Source of the DNA: Amycolatopsis sp. cg9
GTDB lineage: Bacteria; Actinomycetota; Actinomycetes; Mycobacteriales; Pseudonocardiaceae
Direction: 5' to 3'
NCBI RefSeq assembly: GCF_041346945.1
Contig: NZ_CP166850.1
Coordinates: forward strand, 3,596,001-3,660,000
DNA length: 64,000 nucleotides
Part shown: positions 2,760 to 57,833 of the stretch, piece by piece
Position numbering within the stretch: the first letter of the stretch is position 1
Layout of the letters: each line of letters starts with the position of its first letter
Program-made: the position numbers and the translations under genes
Notes under the pieces: model-generated
What the model saw: only the letters and a program-made list of their open reading frames with translations
Databases searched by the model: none
What the model was told of the DNA's origin: nothing

Positions 2760-3535
2760 GACGTCGAATCCTCGCACGAGCCGGGTGCGGGCACCCAGTA
2801 CCGGTATCTGTGGTGCGGGGCGCAGCCGAGCCCCGCGTAGAGCGCGAGCGCGCCCGAGTTCCCCTCCGCCACCTGCAACACCGCGCGGTCCGCTCCCTGT
2901 TCCACGCCCCAGGCTGCCAGTGCCGCCATCAGCGCGGACGCCAGCCCGCGCCGCCGGTGCTCCGGGCGCACGGCCAGGCGCCCGACGTGCAGCCAGCCGT
3001 CCACCAGCGCGCCGCGGACCGCGGCCGCCGTGACCCCGCCGTCGGTCACGACGCCGTAGCCGACCTTCCCGCCGGTCAGAACGGCCCGCGCGGCTTCGGT
3101 GCCGGCGTCCGACCCGAGCGCCAGCTCCCACCACCCCGCCGTCGCTTCGTCCCGCACTTTCACGTGAAAGTGCGCACCTGGGGGCCGCACTTTCACGTGA
3201 AAGTGCGGCTTCTCGAGCGGGGCGGTCAGGACGACGACCTCGTGGCCGGCGCCGTGCGTGGTGGCCGGGACCCAGCCGGAGGCGGCGATCGCGTGCTCGT
3301 TGGGGCTGTCGCGGACCACCTGGGCCATCGGCGGGATCCCCCGATCGTGGGCGAAGTCACACACCGCCCGCAGCGCCTCGGGCACCGGCCGGCCGGGGTC
3401 GCCGACGGCCAGGACGCTGTTGGCGCGCCCGGTGAACCCGTCCGCCCAGCGCAGGCGCCAGCCGCCCAAGCGCTCCTCGACCAACGGCGGCCATGCTCTG
3501 CTGCAGGTGATTTCGAGCGACTCGGGTGCGTTCAC
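2756..3535 (-). CDS. GNAT-family N-acetyltransferase carrying two in-frame palindromic repeats
   Basis: 259 aa; the C-terminal half has the acetyl-CoA-binding GNAT signature (VRPEHRRRGLASALMAAL) followed by GNSGALALYAGLG, as in RimI-like enzymes; the N-terminal half looks like a degenerate GNAT-like domain. Substrate unknown. It heads the F420 operon and overlaps fbiA by 4 bp. Between the halves sits the peptide FHVKVRPPGAHFHVKVR, encoded by two perfect copies of a 20-bp palindrome (3154-3173 and 3187-3206) 33 bp apart, so the frame is kept. The GTG start at 3535 has no clear Shine-Dalgarno sequence; CAATCT a few bases upstream could be a -10 box, so a leaderless mRNA is possible. Confidence 0.85.
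   Translation of the reverse strand: MNAPESLEITCSRAWPPLVEERLGGWRLRWADGFTGRANSVLAVGDPGRPVPEALRAVCDFAHDRGIPPMAQVVRDSPNEHAIAASGWVPATTHGAGHEVVVLTAPLEKPHFHVKVRPPGAHFHVKVRDEATAGWWELALGSDAGTEAARAVLTGGKVGYGVVTDGGVTAAAVRGALVDGWLHVGRLAVRPEHRRRGLASALMAALAAWGVEQGADRAVLQVAEGNSGALALYAGLGCAPHHRYRYWVPAPGSCEDSTS
3154..3206. repeat. Two copies of a 20-bp perfect palindrome inside the GNAT gene
   Basis: The 20-mer GCACTTTCACGTGAAAGTGC occurs at 3154-3173 and 3187-3206. Each copy is a perfect palindrome with a CACGTG centre. The second extends outward by CC/GG on either side. The period of 33 bp equals 11 codons. The same 20-mer recurs at 13972-13991 between genes. Confidence 0.95.
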
Positions 3536-13964: not shown

Positions 13965-13998
13965 GAGGGCGGCACTTTCACGTGAAAGTGCCGCCCTC
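13965..13998. terminator. 34-bp perfect palindrome, probable terminator of the M28 peptidase gene
   Basis: The 17-base arms starting at GAGGGCGGCACTTTCAC are exactly complementary around a CACGTG centre. The inner 20 bases (13972-13991) are identical to the palindrome found twice in the GNAT gene. It lies four bases after the M28 peptidase stop (14003) and upstream of the chitinase promoter, so it may stop transcription from the peptidase gene. Confidence 0.75.
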
Positions 13999-14002
13999 GG
14001 GG

Positions 14003-17957
<3,955 letters not shown>

Positions 17958-27246: not shown

Positions 27247-28167
27247 ATGGCACGATCGTTACTCGTGAGTTGGTTCGAGCGGCGTACGTGGCAGGAGCCC
27301 GGTTGGACGCCCGAGGACATCGTGACCGCGAAGGGTGACCGCACGGTTTCCGTCGTGCTACCGGCCCTCGACGAGGAGCGGACCGTGGGTGCCGTCGTCG
27401 CGTCGGTCCGCCCCCTGGTCGGTTCGGTCGTCGACGAGCTCGTCGTCGTGGACTCGGGTTCCACGGACGCGACGGTCGAAACCGCCGAGGCCGCGGGCGC
27501 CCGGGTGGTCCGCCGCGAGGACGTGCTGCCGGACCTGCCGCCGGTCCCCGGCAAGGGCGAGGTGCTGTGGCGCTCGCTGGCCGCCACCAGCGGCGACCTC
27601 GTCGTCTTCCTCGACTCCGACCTGGTCGACCCGGACCCGGCGTTCGTGCCGTCGCTGCTCGGGCCGCTGGTCACCGAGCCCGGTGTGCACCTGGTCAAGG
27701 GCTTCTACCGCCGCCCGCTGCGGCTGGAGAGCAGCGGCGGCGGGCGCGTCACCGAGCTGCTGGCGCGGCCGGTGCTCTCGGCGCTGCGCCCCGCGCTCGG
27801 CGGGCTGGTCCAGCCCCTCGGCGGCGAGTACGCGGGCACCCGCGAGTTCCTCGAATCGGTGCCGTTCGCCGCCGGGTACGGCGTCGAGATCGGGCTGCTC
27901 CTCGACGCCGAGGCGCGCTACGGCCTCGACGGGCTCGCCCAGGTCAACCTCGGCGTCCGCAAGCACCGGAACCGGTCGCTGCCCCAGCTGGGCGTGATGT
28001 CCCGGCAGATACTGGGCACGGCGCTGGAGCGCTGCGGGGTCCCGGCCGCCGACGCGCCGTTCACGCAGTTCGTCCAGGTCGACGAGGAGTGGCTGCCGGA
28101 CGTCACGGACGTCCGGGTCGCCGATCGGCCGCCGATGCGGGAAGTGCTCGCCCGTCCTCGAGGGTGA
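27247..28167 (+). CDS. gpgS: Glucosyl-3-phosphoglycerate synthase
   Basis: 306-aa GT81 glycosyltransferase, colinear with M. tuberculosis GpgS (Rv1208): SVVLPALDEERTV, VDSGSTDATVE, GKGEVLWRSLA, FLDSDLVDPDP (metal-binding DSD) and the late VNLGVRKHRNRSLPQLG. It makes glucosyl-3-phosphoglycerate, precursor of methylglucose lipopolysaccharides. ATG at 27247 or GTG at 27265 are both possible; neither has a clear Shine-Dalgarno sequence. Its 3' end overlaps the convergent cydC by 65 bp. Confidence 0.93.
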   Translation: MARSLLVSWFERRTWQEPGWTPEDIVTAKGDRTVSVVLPALDEERTVGAVVASVRPLVGSVVDELVVVDSGSTDATVETAEAAGARVVRREDVLPDLPPVPGKGEVLWRSLAATSGDLVVFLDSDLVDPDPAFVPSLLGPLVTEPGVHLVKGFYRRPLRLESSGGGRVTELLARPVLSALRPALGGLVQPLGGEYAGTREFLESVPFAAGYGVEIGLLLDAEARYGLDGLAQVNLGVRKHRNRSLPQLGVMSRQILGTALERCGVPAADAPFTQFVQVDEEWLPDVTDVRVADRPPMREVLARPRG

Positions 28168-29725
28168 GGACCTCGTCGAAGCCGTCCAGGTGCTCGGGCC
28201 GGTGGGTGACCAGGACGACCGTGCCCTTCGCGTGCGCGAGGACGTTCTTGAGGACGGCGTCGCCGTGCGCGGGGTCGAGACCTTCGACGGGCTCGTCGAG
28301 CACCAGGACCGGCGGGGCCGCCAGGACCGCGCGGGCCAGGACCAGCCGCTGCCGCTGACCGCCGGAGAGGGCGTCGCCGTCCGGGCCGGTCGCGCGGTCG
28401 AGGCCCAGGTCGAACCCGGCGACCGCGCAGGCTTCCCGCAGCTCGTCGTCGGTGGCGGCCGGCTTCGCGAGCAGGAGGTTCTCGCGGACGGTCGTGGAGA
28501 AGACGTGCGCGTCGGCTTCGGCGCCCGAGATGACCTTCGACAGGTCCGCGTATTCGCCGAGCGGGTGGCCGTCGAGGAGCACGCGGCCTTCGGTGGGGGT
28601 CCGGCTGCCGAGCAGCAGGCGGAGCAGCGTCGTCTTGCCGGCGCCGCTGGGGCCGAGGATCCCGACGCGCCTGCCGGGCGGCAGGTCGAGGTCGACGTGC
28701 TGCAGCGCCGGGGCTCGGCCCGGGTGGCGGACGCCGGCGTTTTCGAGCCTGAAGTGTCCTTTTTCCGGCGTCCGGGTGCCCTTCGGCGTGGGCGGCTGGG
28801 CCAGGACGGCCCGCACCCGGGCGGCCGACGCGCGGATTTCCGGCACCCGCCGGGCGGCGCCGATCAGCGGGAGGACGACCTCGAAGCTCGTCATGGCGGC
28901 CAGGGTGAGCGCGGCGGTCCAGGGCACGGAGGCGTCGGCCAGCAGCGCGACGGCGACGGTGGTGCCCAGCTGGACGAGCACCCCGGCGGCGCCGAGCAGC
29001 GCGGACGTGCCCGAGGTGGCCCGCTCGCCGTCGGCGATCTCGCCGGCGACACCGGTCGCCCGCGCCCGGTGCTCGGCCAGCGCACCGGCGGCGACGAGCT
29101 CCCGGTGCCCGGTGACGAGCTCGACCGCGCGCTCGGCCAGTTCGGCCCGCTTCGGGGCGCTTTCGGCCGCGGCCCGTGCGGTGGCGCGGACGACCAGCCA
29201 GGGGAGCACCCCACCCGCGACGACCAGCCCGGCGGCGAGCGCGACGGCGGCGCTCACGGAGGCGGTGGCCGTGACGGCGACGGCGGCGCTCCCCACGAGC
29301 GCGGCGACCCCCGCGGGCAGCAGCCACCGCAGGACCGCGTCCTGCAGCGCGTCCACATCGGACACGAGCCGGGTGACGAGGTCGCCGCCGGAGTACCGCG
29401 AACCGGGCGCGAGGGCCTGGTAGACGCGGGTGCGCAGGCCCCCGAGCCACCGCAGGACGACTTCGTGCCCGGCGAGGCGCTCGGCGTACCGGAGCCCACC
29501 CCGGAGCAGCGCGAGCGTCCGCACCCCGACGATGGCGAGGGTCAGCGCCCCGAGCGGCGGCCGTTCGGCGGCGCGCAGCAACAGCCAGGCGGCGGTGGCC
29601 ATGAGCGCGAGGGCGGCGAGTTCGGCCCCGGCACCGAGGAGGGCGGCGCGGACGAGGCGCATGGTGTCCTTTGTGGACACAGCCCAGATCGTCCTTTTGC
29701 CCGGAGTCGTGACGGCGCGGTTCAC
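28103..29725 (-). CDS. cydC: Cytochrome bd assembly ABC transporter, CydC subunit
   Basis: 540-aa half-transporter. Six membrane helices occupy about residues 20-310, and the ABC domain has Walker A GPSGAGKTT, signature LSGGQRQR and Walker B VLVLDEP. With CydD it exports glutathione/cysteine-type thiols or handles haem for cytochrome bd assembly. GTG at 29725 with GGAGG upstream. In the bd operon its start normally follows cydD at once; here 121 bp containing a palindromic repeat separate them, bounded by a 17-bp direct repeat. The last 65 bp overlap gpgS convergently. Confidence 0.93.
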   Translation of the reverse strand: MNRAVTTPGKRTIWAVSTKDTMRLVRAALLGAGAELAALALMATAAWLLLRAAERPPLGALTLAIVGVRTLALLRGGLRYAERLAGHEVVLRWLGGLRTRVYQALAPGSRYSGGDLVTRLVSDVDALQDAVLRWLLPAGVAALVGSAAVAVTATASVSAAVALAAGLVVAGGVLPWLVVRATARAAAESAPKRAELAERAVELVTGHRELVAAGALAEHRARATGVAGEIADGERATSGTSALLGAAGVLVQLGTTVAVALLADASVPWTAALTLAAMTSFEVVLPLIGAARRVPEIRASAARVRAVLAQPPTPKGTRTPEKGHFRLENAGVRHPGRAPALQHVDLDLPPGRRVGILGPSGAGKTTLLRLLLGSRTPTEGRVLLDGHPLGEYADLSKVISGAEADAHVFSTTVRENLLLAKPAATDDELREACAVAGFDLGLDRATGPDGDALSGGQRQRLVLARAVLAAPPVLVLDEPVEGLDPAHGDAVLKNVLAHAKGTVVLVTHRPEHLDGFDEVLTLEDGRALPASAADRRPGRP

Positions 29726-29863
29726 GCGGTCACCTCCGGCAGCCCAAGCGCCCCAATGTGGCGTTGGTTGCGTTCAACGCACCGAACGCCACATTGGGTG
29801 CGCTGGACGCACCGAACGCCACATTGGGGCGCTCGGGTCGTGTGGCTCACGCGGTCACCTCCG
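29722..29863. repeat. 17-bp direct repeats flanking the palindromic element at the cydD/cydC junction
   Basis: TCACGCGGTCACCTCCG occurs at 29722-29738 (start and Shine-Dalgarno of cydC) and again at 29847-29863 (last codons and stop of cydD). The two copies are 125 bp apart and enclose the modular palindromic element. Removing one copy plus the element would recreate a cydD-cydC junction with a GTGA overlap. Confidence 0.9.
29745..29839. repeat. Modular palindromic repeat element, copy 1
   Basis: Forward arm CCCAATGTGGCGTT (29752-29765) and two inverted arms AACGCCACATTGGG (29785-29798 and 29815-29828). Between arm 1 and arm 2 lies TGCGTTCAACGCA; between arm 2 and arm 3 lies TGCGCTGGACGCA; both are themselves palindromic. 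The outer arms pair over 18 bp including flanking GCGC. Flanks CAAGCGCC and GCTCGGGT resemble those of the second copy at 45284. Confidence 0.92.
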
Positions 29864-31409
29864 TGCGGATCCGGCCGTCGCGGAGTTCGACCACCCGGTC
29901 GGCCAGTGCCAGCAGCGCCGGTCGGTGGGCGACGAGCACCGCGGTGCGGTCGGGCAGCAGCCGCCGGGTCGCCGAGAGCACCGTCTCTTCCGTCCGGGAG
30001 TCCAGCCTGGTCGTCGGCTCGTCGAGCAACAGCAGACCCGCCGACGTCCGGGCGAGTGCCCGTGCCAGGCCGACCCGCTGTCGCTGGCCTGCCGACAGGC
30101 CTTCGCCCAGCTCGCCCACCTGGGTCGCGTAGCCCGCGGGCAGGCCCGCCGCCACGGAGTCCAAGGCCGCGGCGCGGGCGGCGGCCGGGACGTCCGCGGA
30201 CGGCAGGCCCAGCGCGACGTTCTCCGCCAGCGTCCCGCGGAACAGCGTCGGCCGCTGGGGCACCCAGGCCACCTCGGCGAGCCAGTCGGCGGGCGACAGC
30301 GATCGCAGGTCGACCCCGTCGACGAGCACCCGCCCCGACGACGGCGGCACGAACCCCAGCAGCACCGCCAGCAGCGTGCTCTTCCCGGACCCGCTCGGCC
30401 CCACCACGGCGATCCGCGCGCCCGCGGGCACCGTCAAGTCCACTTCGGACAACGCCGGAACGCCGTCGTGGCAGACCGAAACCCGTTCCAGGACCAGCGA
30501 AGGCGCGCCCCGGCGCCGGGTGGCCGTCGCCGACCGGGGGGACACCACCGGTGCCGCGAGGGCCTCCCGCAGCGCCGTCAAGCCCTCGGCCGCCGCGTGG
30601 AACTTCGCGCCCGCCGCGCGCAGCGGCAGGTAGGCCTCCGGGGCGAGCACGAGCACCAGCATCGCCGTCCGGGCGTCGAGGCCGCCGTCCAGGAGGCGGA
30701 AGCCGATCGGCACCGCGACCAGCGCCACCGACATCGTCGCCACCAGCTCCAGCACCAGCGCCGAAAGGAACGCGATCCGCAGCGTCTTCATCGTCGCATC
30801 GGCGTGCGCGGCGGCCATCGACCGGACCGTCGACGCCTGTGCCGCCGCCCGGCCGAACAGCCGGAGCGTCCCCAGTCCCCGCACCACGTCGAGGAAGTGG
30901 CCGCCCAGCTCGGTCAGCAGCGACCACTGCCGCTCGGTGCGCGTCGCGGTGTGCTTGCCGACCAGGATCGCGAAGACCGGGATCAGCGGCAGCGTCGCCG
31001 TGACGACCAGCGCCGACACCAGGTCCGTCGTGAACAGCCGCACGATCACCGCGGCCGGCACCACCACCGACACGACCAGGGATGGCAGGTACCCGGTCAG
31101 GTAGCCGTCCGTGGCGTCGACCCCGCGCGTCACCTGCGTGGCGACGACGCCCGCGCGGTCGGCGCGGGACTCGAGCAACCGGCGGCGCAGACCGTCGCGC
31201 ACCGAGGCCGCGAACCGTCCACTCAGGACGCCGTGGCCCCACGAGAGCAGTACTCGCGCGGCGATCGCGACGACCAGGACCAGTGGGACACCGTCACCGG
31301 TGAGCAGCGTGGCGAGGCCTTCGGCCTGCAGGAGCACCGACGCGGCGGTGCACACCCCGAGCGCGGCCAGCACGGCCAGGTAGCGCCGGAGTCCGGGCAG
31401 AGCGGGCAC
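29847..31409 (-). CDS. cydD: Cytochrome bd assembly ABC transporter, CydD subunit
   Basis: 520-aa half-transporter with about six membrane helices (roughly 10-300) and an ABC domain: Walker A GPSGSGKST, a signature reading LSAGQRQR (Ala replaces the first Gly) and Walker B LLLLDEP. Partner of CydC. GTG at 31409, ten bases downstream of cydB. The C-terminal codons RTEVTA and the stop lie in the direct repeat that recurs at the cydC start. Confidence 0.93.
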   Translation of the reverse strand: MPALPGLRRYLAVLAALGVCTAASVLLQAEGLATLLTGDGVPLVLVVAIAARVLLSWGHGVLSGRFAASVRDGLRRRLLESRADRAGVVATQVTRGVDATDGYLTGYLPSLVVSVVVPAAVIVRLFTTDLVSALVVTATLPLIPVFAILVGKHTATRTERQWSLLTELGGHFLDVVRGLGTLRLFGRAAAQASTVRSMAAAHADATMKTLRIAFLSALVLELVATMSVALVAVPIGFRLLDGGLDARTAMLVLVLAPEAYLPLRAAGAKFHAAAEGLTALREALAAPVVSPRSATATRRRGAPSLVLERVSVCHDGVPALSEVDLTVPAGARIAVVGPSGSGKSTLLAVLLGFVPPSSGRVLVDGVDLRSLSPADWLAEVAWVPQRPTLFRGTLAENVALGLPSADVPAAARAAALDSVAAGLPAGYATQVGELGEGLSAGQRQRVGLARALARTSAGLLLLDEPTTRLDSRTEETVLSATRRLLPDRTAVLVAHRPALLALADRVVELRDGRIRTEVTA

Positions 31410-44859: not shown

Positions 44860-45270
44860 GTGTTCGACAGCGTCGGGTGGGGCGAAATCCTCGTCCTCAT
44901 CATCGCCGGTCTCTTCATCCTCGGCCCGGAACGCCTCCCCGAGGCGGCCTCCTGGCTGGCGAAGAGCGTGAAGAAGGTCCGCGACTTCGCGACCGGCGCC
45001 CGTGAGCAGCTGCGCGAGGAAATGGGCCCGGAGTTCGACCAGCTCCGCAAACCCCTCGAAGACCTGCGCGGCCTGCGCAACTTCGACCCCAAGCGCGTGG
45101 TGACGCAGCACCTGTTCGACGGCGACGCGGACCCGCTGGGCCTGAAGGGCATCACGAACGGCACCAACGGGACGAACGGGTCCAACGGCACGACGGTCGG
45201 TCAGACCCAGTCCCAGCCGGAACCGTTGAAGCCGGGCGAGCGCCCGCCGATCGACCCCGACGCCACGTAG
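44860..45270 (+). CDS. tatB: Sec-independent protein translocase subunit TatB
   Basis: 136 aa. N-terminal membrane helix [19 protein letters not shown] with the Tat hinge, an amphipathic helix ([20 protein letters not shown]) and a low-complexity tail ([13 protein letters not shown]). Part of the Tat exporter of folded proteins. GTG at 44860 after GGAGG. A palindromic repeat element follows before the convergent mrp stop. Confidence 0.94.
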
Positions 45271-45283
45271 CCCGCCACTTCTC

Positions 45284-45377
45284 AAGCGCCCCAATGTGGC
45301 GTTCGGTGCGCTGGACGCACCGAACGCCACATTGGGTGCGTTCAACGCACCCAACGCCACATTGGGGTGTTCGGGTC
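45284..45377. repeat. Modular palindromic repeat element, copy 2
   Basis: Forward arm CCCAATGTGGCGTT (45290-45303) and inverted arms AACGCCACATTGGG (45323-45336 and 45353-45366). The inner modules are in the opposite order to copy 1: TGCGCTGGACGCA first, TGCGTTCAACGCA second. Flanks CAAGCGCC and GTTCGGGTC match copy 1. It fills the tatB-mrp convergent gap and reaches the mrp stop codon, so it may also act as a terminator. Confidence 0.92.
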
Positions 45378-46530
45378 AGCGGCCGGCCGGGGTCACGTTC
45401 AGCATCATCCCCGCCAGGCCGCGCGCCCGGACCGAGAGCTTCTTCGCGACGTCGTTCAGCACCACCGACGCCGGTGCTTCCGGCTCGGACAGCACGATCG
45501 GCGTGCCCGCGTCGCCCTGGGCGACCACCCGGGGGTCCATCGGGACCTGGCCGAGCAGCGGCACCTCGGAGCCGATCGACTTCGTCAGCGAGTCGGCCAC
45601 CGTCTGGCCGCCGCCGGCGCCGAAGATCTCCAGGCGGGAGCCGTCGGCCTGCTCCAGCCACGACATGTTCTCGATGACGCCCGCCACGCGCTGGCGCGTC
45701 TGCAGCGCGATCGCCCCGGCGCGCTCGGCCACCTCGGCCGCCGCCTGCTGGGGGGTGGTGACCACCAGGATCTCCGCGTTCGGGATCAGCTGGGCCACCG
45801 AGATCGCGATGTCGCCGGTGCCCGGCGGCAGGTCCAGCAGCAGGATGTCCAGGTCGCCCCAGAACACGTCCGCCAGGAACTGCTGCAGCGCGCGGTGCAG
45901 CATCGGGCCGCGCCACACCACCGGCGTGTTGCCCGGGGTGAACATGCCGATCGAGATCACCTTCACGCCGTGGGACTGCGGCGGCATGATCATCGTGTCG
46001 ACCTTGGTCGGCTTCTCGCGCGCGCCCAGCATGCGGGGGATCGAGTGGCCGTAGATGTCGGCGTCCACGACACCCACCGAAAGGCCGCGGGCGGCCATCG
46101 ACGCCGCCAGGTTCACCGTGACCGACGACTTGCCGACGCCGCCCTTGCCCGAGGCCACGCAGTACACGCGGGTCATCGAGCCCGGCTGCGCGAACGGGAT
46201 CACCGGCTCCGCCGCGTCCCCGCGGAGGGACTTGCGCAGCTCGGAGCGCTGCTCGTCACTCATGACGTCCAGCTCGACGCGCACGTCCACGACGCCCGGG
46301 AGCTTCGCGACGGCTTCCTTCGTGTCGTTGGTCAGCGTCGCCTTCAGCGGGCAGCCCGCGACCGTCAGGTAGATCCCGACCGTCACGACGCCGTCGTCGC
46401 CGACGACCACGTCCTTGACCATCCCCAGGTCCGTGATGGGTTTCCGGATCTCCGGGTCTTGCACGCTCTTCAGCGCGCTGCGGACGTCGTCGACGCTGGG
46501 GAGCTGCTGAGTACTGGTCACCCCGTCCAT
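45376..46530 (-). CDS. mrp: Iron-sulfur cluster carrier Mrp/ApbC
   Basis: 384 aa. An N-terminal MIP18/DUF59 domain (about 10-85) is fused to the ParA-like P-loop ATPase (GKGGVGKSS at 128-136; DADIYGHS; LLLDLPPGTGD). It delivers 4Fe-4S clusters to apoproteins. ATG at 46530, with a GTG nine bases downstream as alternative. The usual C-terminal CxxC pair is not visible in the translation, as in some actinobacterial Mrp proteins. Corresponds to Rv1229c. Confidence 0.93.
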   Translation of the reverse strand: MDGVTSTQQLPSVDDVRSALKSVQDPEIRKPITDLGMVKDVVVGDDGVVTVGIYLTVAGCPLKATLTNDTKEAVAKLPGVVDVRVELDVMSDEQRSELRKSLRGDAAEPVIPFAQPGSMTRVYCVASGKGGVGKSSVTVNLAASMAARGLSVGVVDADIYGHSIPRMLGAREKPTKVDTMIMPPQSHGVKVISIGMFTPGNTPVVWRGPMLHRALQQFLADVFWGDLDILLLDLPPGTGDIAISVAQLIPNAEILVVTTPQQAAAEVAERAGAIALQTRQRVAGVIENMSWLEQADGSRLEIFGAGGGQTVADSLTKSIGSEVPLLGQVPMDPRVVAQGDAGTPIVLSEPEAPASVVLNDVAKKLSVRARGLAGMMLNVTPAGR

Positions 46531-57766: not shown

Positions 57767-57780
57767 GCCGCCGGTGGTTC

Positions 57781-57827
57781 GTGAAGGCCACCTCGAGGAA
57801 CGAGAAGTTCCTCGAGGTGGCCTTCAC
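57781..57827. terminator. 21-bp perfect stem-loop after sugC
   Basis: A 21-base arm at 57781-57801 (beginning GTGAAGGCCACCTCGAGG) is exactly complementary to 57807-57827 around a GAGAA loop. It lies 14 bases after the sugC stop and seven before the convergent lipoprotein stop, so it can end transcription from both sides. Confidence 0.9.
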
Positions 57828-57833
57828 GGCGTT

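What the first reader, a model, noticed from the sequence alone, without database searches (positions are those of the whole stretch)
29722..29863. Palindromic element flanked by a 17-bp duplication exactly at the cydD/cydC stop-start junction
TCACGCGGTCACCTCCG at 29722-29738 holds the cydC start and ribosome site; the same 17 bases at 29847-29863 hold the cydD end and stop. Deleting one copy plus the insert restores a GTGA-coupled cydD-cydC junction. This looks like an insertion with target-site duplication that left both genes intact but uncoupled them. No transposase is encoded, so the element would have to be moved in trans or arise by a replication error.
Basis: partly seen in the sequence, partly recalled or inferred. 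Interest (0 to 1): 0.75.

Follow-up and report, generated by a model that had tools for sequence, protein, structure and literature searches.

The report
Mobile hairpin repeat between cydD and cydC
The insert between two genes of an Amycolatopsis soil bacterium is one copy of a hairpin-shaped repeat found about a hundred times in its genome, mostly right behind genes and sometimes inside them in frame, and its middle piece tends to point with the direction of DNA replication.

Summary
In detail: the 17-mer is at both stated places, and 25 of 51 junctions compared carry a 54-nt allele without the insert. The insert is not unique. It is one copy of a dispersed modular palindrome: 322 exact cores in this Amycolatopsis genome, 0 for the reversed control, a second copy in the window at 45289-45367. 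All 86 copies catalogued read F(n)R(m), mostly three 17-bp arms with 13-bp spacers. Most sit just behind stop codons; 13 lie inside genes, all in one peptide frame, including 9 of 15 KS-AT linkers found in one polyketide region. Sites are occupied or empty among relatives. Long flanking duplication is rare (5 of 86), varies in length, and one relative has a duplicated junction without the element, so a classical target-site duplication is not shown. No Y1/RAYT transposase was found in 80 Amycolatopsis genomes. The middle arm follows replication direction in three genomes (58/80, 53/82, 45/68). Best reading: an undescribed REP/RPE-like mobile hairpin, remodelled by template switching; its mover is unknown.

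The parts
29743..29837 (.). Copy 1 of the repeat: palindrome with conserved ends; core CCCAATG..CATTGGG 29752-29828, plan F R R on the + strand
29752..29768 (+). Arm 1 (forward, GGT variant after the core)
29769..29781 (.). Spacer 1, TGCGTTCAACGCA
   Evidence: read
29782..29798 (-). Arm 2 (middle, reverse): the arm whose direction is biased by replication across copies
29799..29811 (.). Spacer 2, TGCGCTGGACGCA
   Evidence: read
29812..29828 (-). Arm 3 (reverse, CGG variant)
29722..29738 (.). 17-mer copy with the cydC GTG start (GTGA on the minus strand at 29722-29725)
29847..29863 (.). 17-mer copy with the cydD end and TGA stop
29689..29718 (-). 30 bases near the cydC start that the 54-nt allele of relatives lacks
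   Evidence: aligned by eye
28103..29725 (-). cydC ORF, 540 aa (name as given by the finding; no family search of mine)
   Evidence: start uncertain, chose 29680
29847..31409 (-). cydD ORF, 520 aa (name as given by the finding)
45289..45367 (.). Copy 2 of the repeat, plan F R R, between convergent genes (TAG 45268-45270; reverse-strand stop 45376-45378)

Best explanation
The insert is a copy of an undescribed, high-copy, mobile hairpin repeat of Amycolatopsis. Shown here: a modular palindrome (17-bp arms in the order F..F R..R, 13-bp near-palindromic spacers, conserved ends); roughly a hundred copies in this genome; sites occupied in some species and empty in others; most intergenic copies directly behind a stop codon; intragenic copies read in one peptide frame; the middle arm pointing with the replication fork more often than chance in three genomes. 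Inferred: copies spread through a hairpin or single-strand intermediate handled by an enzyme not identified here, into breaks of varying stagger or into freshly duplicated DNA. Only insertions that keep both neighbours survive, so at overlapping stop/start or stop/stop junctions survivors often carry a duplication that supplies the second stop, ribosome site or start. After insertion, polymerase template switching within the palindrome equalises arms, changes arm number and flips the middle module; unequal switching on the two strands would give the replication bias. At cydD-cydC the likely effect is to turn tight translational coupling into two separately started genes with a strong hairpin between them that may lower or end cydC transcription (not tested).
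For: Copy number with zero in the reversed control. One plan in 86 of 86 catalogued copies and sharp borders. Empty alleles at cydD-cydC in 25 of 51 loci, 16 distinct sequences, and occupied/empty differences at 28 traced sites. Stops within 20 bp on both sides at 27 of 38 convergent sites and on the stop side at 23 of 30 tandem sites. 13 of 13 called intragenic copies open in one frame. Fork-direction bias 58/80, 53/82, 45/68 with the origin placed by parS-like sites and, in this genome, parB, a ParA-like gene, rsmG and yidC beside them. Orthologous copies differ in direction in 9 of 22 comparisons (by hand). Template switching is reported to homogenise arms and invert spacers (PMC8604942, passages).
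Against: No mover was identified; only one transposase family was searched for. Direction differences at orthologous sites could be independent insertions or replacements, not flips. The bias is not significant within convergent sites alone (p 0.089) and is weaker outside tandem sites (33 of 50, p 0.033); shared sites make the three genomes not independent. Duplication at some sites may have come before the element (G092). No RNA or protein data.
Confidence: 0.6

Rival explanations
1. Ordinary MITE moved in trans by a DDE transposase; the 17 bp are its target-site duplication.
For: Inverted ends and real empty sites; 108 bp between the two 17-mers is about the size of an element with slightly longer ends.
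Against: Only 5 of 86 flank pairs carry a long repeat above control; lengths vary; G069 lacks the duplication. No transposon carrying these ends was seen: all 86 copies have both ends within 150 bp, though a search for distant end pairs was not made.
Confidence: 0.15
2. Duplication first: the junction was tandemly duplicated by slippage, and a hairpin later landed in the spare copy.
For: G092 has a duplicated junction without any arm (L103). At 81747 and 113084 the duplicated stop lies some distance from the element.
Against: At cydD-cydC the copies lie close to the element in both the window and A. eburnea. It does not explain how the hairpin spreads; it can combine with the best explanation.
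Confidence: 0.25
3. Not mobile DNA but host terminators or protein-binding sites kept alike by selection or gene conversion.
For: Strong hairpins behind stops; 17 of 51 element-free orthologous sites hold another inverted repeat, 0 of 51 coding stretches do.
Against: In-frame copies inside genes; 34 of 51 element-free sites have no strong inverted repeat; no T-run follows the hairpin at the two window copies. A terminator role may still be gained after insertion.
Confidence: 0.1
4. REP-type repeat moved by a RAYT (Y1) transposase.
For: High copy number, palindromes, location behind genes as reported for REPs (PMC3733652, passages).
Against: PF01797 not found in 80 of 80 genus genomes, control rings in 5 of 14 genomes; no GTAG at the element ends.
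Confidence: 0.03

Closest known systems
Rickettsia palindromic elements (RPE)
   Same: Palindromic repeats inserted in frame in genes of unrelated function, each family giving a conserved peptide (PMC10969869, passages)
   Different: Most copies here are between genes (73 of 86, one of those a frameshifted PKS copy); modular arms; no CGTC at the element ends; different phylum
REP / REPIN elements with RAYT
   Same: High copy, hairpin, close behind stop codons (PMC3733652, passages)
   Different: No GTAG end; no Y1 transposase found in the genus sample
BOX, RUP and SPRITE repeats of pneumococcus
   Same: BOX has a middle module in varying copy number; SPRITE sits at gene 3' ends and resembles a terminator (PMC3049150, passages)
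   Different: GC-rich, middle module in either direction with a fork-linked bias, no U-rich tract at the window copies; sequence relation not tested
MITEs
   Same: Short, inverted ends, no coding of a mover, dispersed
   Different: No partner transposon and no constant duplication found here
Template switching between inverted-repeat arms
   Same: Arm homogenisation and spacer inversion, affected by fork direction (PMC8604942, passages); strand bias in E. coli (PMC7202029, passages)
   Different: A mutation process, not an element; the reported spacer changes are a few bases in yeast genes

Membership tests
REP/RAYT (REPIN) | High-copy short palindrome mostly at gene 3' ends | tested here: met
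REP/RAYT (REPIN) | GTAG at one end | tested here: not met
   listed bodies and borders end CCC[AG]AGC.. / ..GCT[TC]GGG
REP/RAYT (REPIN) | Y1 (RAYT) transposase in the genome | tested here: not met
   0 of 80 genus genomes; control 5 of 14
Rickettsia palindromic element | In-frame insertion in coding genes with a conserved peptide | tested here: met
   13 of 13 called intragenic copies in one frame; a 14th (10210973) shifts the frame
Rickettsia palindromic element | Mostly inside genes | tested here: not met
   13 of 86 called inside genes
Rickettsia palindromic element | CGTC at one end (reported for R. conorii RPEs) | tested here: not met
   CGTC occurs in many spacers, not at the borders
Rickettsia palindromic element | Sequence relation to RPEs | not tested
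   no RPE sequence was compared
MITE | Terminal inverted repeats | tested here: met
MITE | Target-site duplication of constant length | tested here: inconclusive
   5 of 86 with a long repeat above control; the 9 bp next to the element were skipped
MITE | Autonomous partner with the same ends | tested here: inconclusive
   none among 86 copies; distant end pairs not searched, about a quarter of the cores not fetched
BOX-type modular repeat | Middle module in varying number | tested here: met
   2 to 5 arms; 3 against 5 arms at one site
BOX-type modular repeat | Sequence relation to BOX | not tested
   not compared
Intrinsic terminator / SPRITE | Stable hairpin behind a stop | tested here: met
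Intrinsic terminator / SPRITE | U-rich tract after the hairpin | tested here: not met
   window copies only, by eye
Intrinsic terminator / SPRITE | RNA 3' ends at the element | not testable with these tools
   no transcript data

The most novel reading that the evidence does not exclude
A mobile hairpin family without a recognised transposase whose middle module behaves as a replication compass: template switching flips it in place until it points with the local fork, so the direction of many copies records replication direction. The same element is tolerated inside genes because its palindrome gives one harmless peptide whichever way it lies, which has let it settle in polyketide synthase linkers.
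Probability: 0.35. Interest if true: 0.82.

Novelty: new variant of a known kind. Interest (0 to 1): 0.62.

Why it matters
It turns a local curiosity into a family amplified in one antibiotic-producing genus: a hairpin that spreads without a RAYT having been found, sits on tight gene junctions, and writes one peptide into polyketide synthase linkers. If the fork bias of the middle arm is due to flipping, the copies are a natural genome-wide record of template switching in palindromes that strain comparisons can test directly. The cydD-cydC copy shows how such an element can enter an overlapping stop/start and leave both genes open.

Tried and rejected
RAYT: searched, not found. A transposon with the same ends: none among the 86 copies. 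An IS5-like element in G069 beside arm remnants was looked at as a mover; it looks like an IS inside an element (its type is my reading, no family search). Viral carriage: 42 contigs with one 15-mer hit each, which looks like chance; they were not read further. Rfam: no match in the window. No tRNA in the window.

Duplication as a general property: dropped, which skips 9 bp next to the element and reaches 60 bp. It therefore misses the 15270 duplication, seen by eye.

Transcription as the cause of the bias: at 30 tandem sites 25 fit replication and 20 transcription; of 11 head-on sites 8 fit replication. Replication fits better, on small numbers.

Errors of mine: the protein was out of frame, so its tally (56 of 80) is not used; its 30 loci were used only after both junction anchors were found in each. 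Notes 43 and 46 contain slips (12 of 13 coding copies); one search shows 13 of 13 called copies in frame, and a fourteenth, called divergent, is frameshifted. One search used a strict pattern; A. eburnea's variant (P0003) was not counted. One search's output was cut; sites 10-17 were rerun. L290 was fetched and not analysed.

Full report
What was checked first. The two 17-mers, the palindrome and the ORF ends are where the finding puts them. The core AACGCCACATTGGG occurs six times in the window with up to two mismatches (all six exact), three at the finding and three at 45290-45366, against 0.27 expected from shuffles. The second copy lies between convergent genes, 10 and 0 bp from the two stops by my gene caller, with no flanking repeat above control.

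A family. The window lies in a 10.6-Mb genome. The core has 161 forward and 161 reverse exact matches there; the pattern read backwards has none. Of 54 loci returned for cydD, 19 are named Amycolatopsis, the closest A. eburnea at 92% (which leaves out the window's own and very near records). I gathered 86 copies from three listings and fetched DNA. The listings need exact cores or ends and are capped, so the set is incomplete and says nothing about how diverged copies can be. The fetched G000 DNA holds 250 hits of a relaxed core against 322 exact cores genome-wide, so roughly 25 copies were not fetched.

Anatomy. Along the + strand all 86 copies read F(n)R(m): +-- 41, ++- 35, +- 6, +++- 2, ++++- 1, +---- 1, with 30 bp between like arms and 33 at the turn. 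A unit is a 17-bp arm and a 13-bp near-palindromic spacer. Conservation fades about 9 bp outside the core. Of 76 three-arm copies, 72 have CGG after the core in one outer arm and GGT or GGG in the other; relative to that polarity the middle arm points either way equally, 37 to 35. The window copies fold as one long hairpin: -77.0 and -79.1 kcal/mol for the two strands of copy 1 (z -8.3 and -9.7), -70.5 and -67.5 for copy 2.

Where copies sit. Genes were called by a codon-model script of my own, so contexts are approximate: 38 convergent, 30 tandem, 13 inside genes, 5 divergent. At 27 of 38 convergent sites both stops are within 20 bp and at 36 at least one; at 23 of 30 tandem sites the stop side is within 20 bp, at 2 the start side. 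Published REPs have a similar 3'-end habit (PMC3733652, passages).

Inside genes. All 13 called intragenic copies are open and use the same element frame, PNVAFGASDA / PNATLGASDA, which the palindrome gives in either direction. In a 95-kb polyketide region, 9 of the 15 KS-AT linkers found by one motif hold a copy at the same point; in three more fetched stretches 2 of 9 do, and one further linker (10210973) holds a two-arm copy that shifts the frame. The other two intragenic copies are in what I read as a synthase linker (7741571) and in the proline-rich linker of a caspase-family protein (4484667; PF00656). Of the 120 listed relatives of that protein (of 2,599), 10 carry the peptide by a strict pattern, with two to five units by eye; A. 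eburnea carries a variant. Polyketide modules duplicate, so the 13 are not 13 independent events.

Presence and absence at cydD-cydC. I compared 51 of the 84 loci (L031-L051, L085-L114; the other 33 were left out as distant). 25 of 51 have a 54-nt junction without insert, 24 of these with one GGAGG..GTGA-type copy of the motif, near-identical rather than identical to the window's, and L114 with a different leader. Nine are repeats of the same sequence from the two collections, leaving 16 distinct. Four loci carry the element: the window's own genome, G069, A. eburnea (L044) and G051 (L088); the last two look the same and share a contig length with an A. eburnea record. One (G092) has a duplicated junction without element; 21 have other lengths. 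A. eburnea has five arms and the duplication. G069 has two arms by a two-mismatch pattern (one by the stricter pattern), no duplication, and 66 extra bases that read open in frame from the overlapping GTG (by eye).

Other sites. Orthologues of 28 sites were sought in three relatives. G051 is occupied at 15 and without arms at 11; G004 at 10 and 17; G069 at 2, with one arm at 2 and none at 23.

The duplication. With the 9 bp next to the element skipped, 5 of 86 flank pairs score 12 or more against about 0.1 expected from swapped flanks: 3625752 (this finding), 113084, 2338759, 3797647 and 81747. By eye, duplications that include a stop or a stop/start overlap are at 15270, 81747, 113084, 908658, 6365527 and 6621644, about 8 to 30 bp long and at varying distance from the element. 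The common thread is that they restore a needed stop or start, which points to selection among survivors; that is an inference. A constant short duplication next to the element is not excluded.

Other hairpins at the same sites. Of 51 element-free orthologous sites 17 hold another strong inverted repeat, some of a repeated kind such as GAATGACTCATTC, against 0 of 51 coding stretches. Gene ends in this genus may host several hairpin families.

Replication. parS-like sites cluster at 2.575 Mb beside parB, a ParA-like gene, rsmG and yidC, which places the origin. The middle arm points in the favoured sense in 58 of 80 asymmetric copies in G000, 53 of 82 in G057 and 45 of the 68 listed of 71 in G060 (p 7e-5, 0.011, 0.010; pooled 156 of 230, p 7e-8, not corrected for shared sites). 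The origin best fitting arm directions alone is at 2.55-2.80 Mb, 7.0-7.25 Mb and 2.45-2.70 Mb, near the parS clusters at 2.575, 7.328 and 2.380 Mb. Against this: within convergent sites alone the effect is not significant (p 0.089), and outside tandem sites it is 33 of 50 (p 0.033); without intragenic copies it is 50 of 69 (p 2e-4). In 22 comparisons of orthologous copies with three or more arms, 9 differ (by hand): two with only the middle arm changed (6907766 in G051, 4890984 in G004), one with ends swapped and middle unchanged, five as if the whole were turned, one unclear. These may be flips or fresh insertions. Template switching between inverted-repeat arms is reported to homogenise arms, invert spacers and depend on fork direction (PMC8604942, passages); strand bias is reported for E. 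coli quasipalindromes (PMC7202029, passages). PMC8794818 was seen only in a listing.

Who moves it. PF01797 was not found in 80 genus genomes, while 5 of 14 control genomes ring. The exact core is in 43 of 80 genus genomes, 1 to 518 matches; in 12 of 200 genomes drawn from the family, in 6 of 46 genera, with the 33-bp inverted pair in three genera other than Amycolatopsis; and in 0 of 16 genomes of other families of the order.

In print? The core 14-mer, in either direction, is in none of the 5.39 million open papers as text. Searches on palindromic or MITE-like repeats with Amycolatopsis, Pseudonocardiaceae or actinobacteria listed no title or abstract describing it. Most subscription papers and all supplements were out of reach.

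Verdict. The observation and the insertion reading stand; the target-site-duplication reading is weakened. This is a member of an undescribed mobile hairpin family that works like REP and RPE elements but fails tests for either. The fork-linked middle arm is the most surprising part and needs the direct tests listed.

Noticed in passing
L103 (G092), cydD-cydC junction: Tandemly duplicated junction (two GGAGGTGGCGGCGTGAAC copies) without any arm of the repeat.
   Followed up: partly
G000 C1 10210973 (L340): Two-arm copy in a KS-AT linker after which the polyketide frame changes; a broken module or a sequence error.
   Followed up: no
window 3152-3208 and 13965-13998: Hairpins that share CACTTTCACGTGAAAGTG, perhaps another repeat family.
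   Followed up: no
window 57780-57828 and 15645-15681: Hairpins that share CGTGAAGGCC..GGCCTTCACG, like one at an element-free site in G051.
   Followed up: no
element-free orthologous sites in G004, G051, G069: Other repeated palindromes, e.g. GAATGACTCATTC, at the place where G000 has the element.
   Followed up: partly
L291 3168-4070 (G069): IS5-like insertion sequence beside remnants of an element arm at the site orthologous to 1256185.
   Followed up: partly
caspase-family protein at G000 C1 4484667 (L334) and relatives P0005, P0007, P0020, P0022, P0023, P0026, P0034, P0037, P0055: Element-coded peptide in the proline-rich linker with a varying number of units between species.
   Followed up: partly
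window 29689-29718: 30 bases near the cydC start that the relatives' 54-nt allele lacks; origin unknown.
   Followed up: no
G114, G151, G251, G122: Low-copy occurrences of the core with the same 33-bp inverted spacing in three other genera of the family.
   Followed up: no
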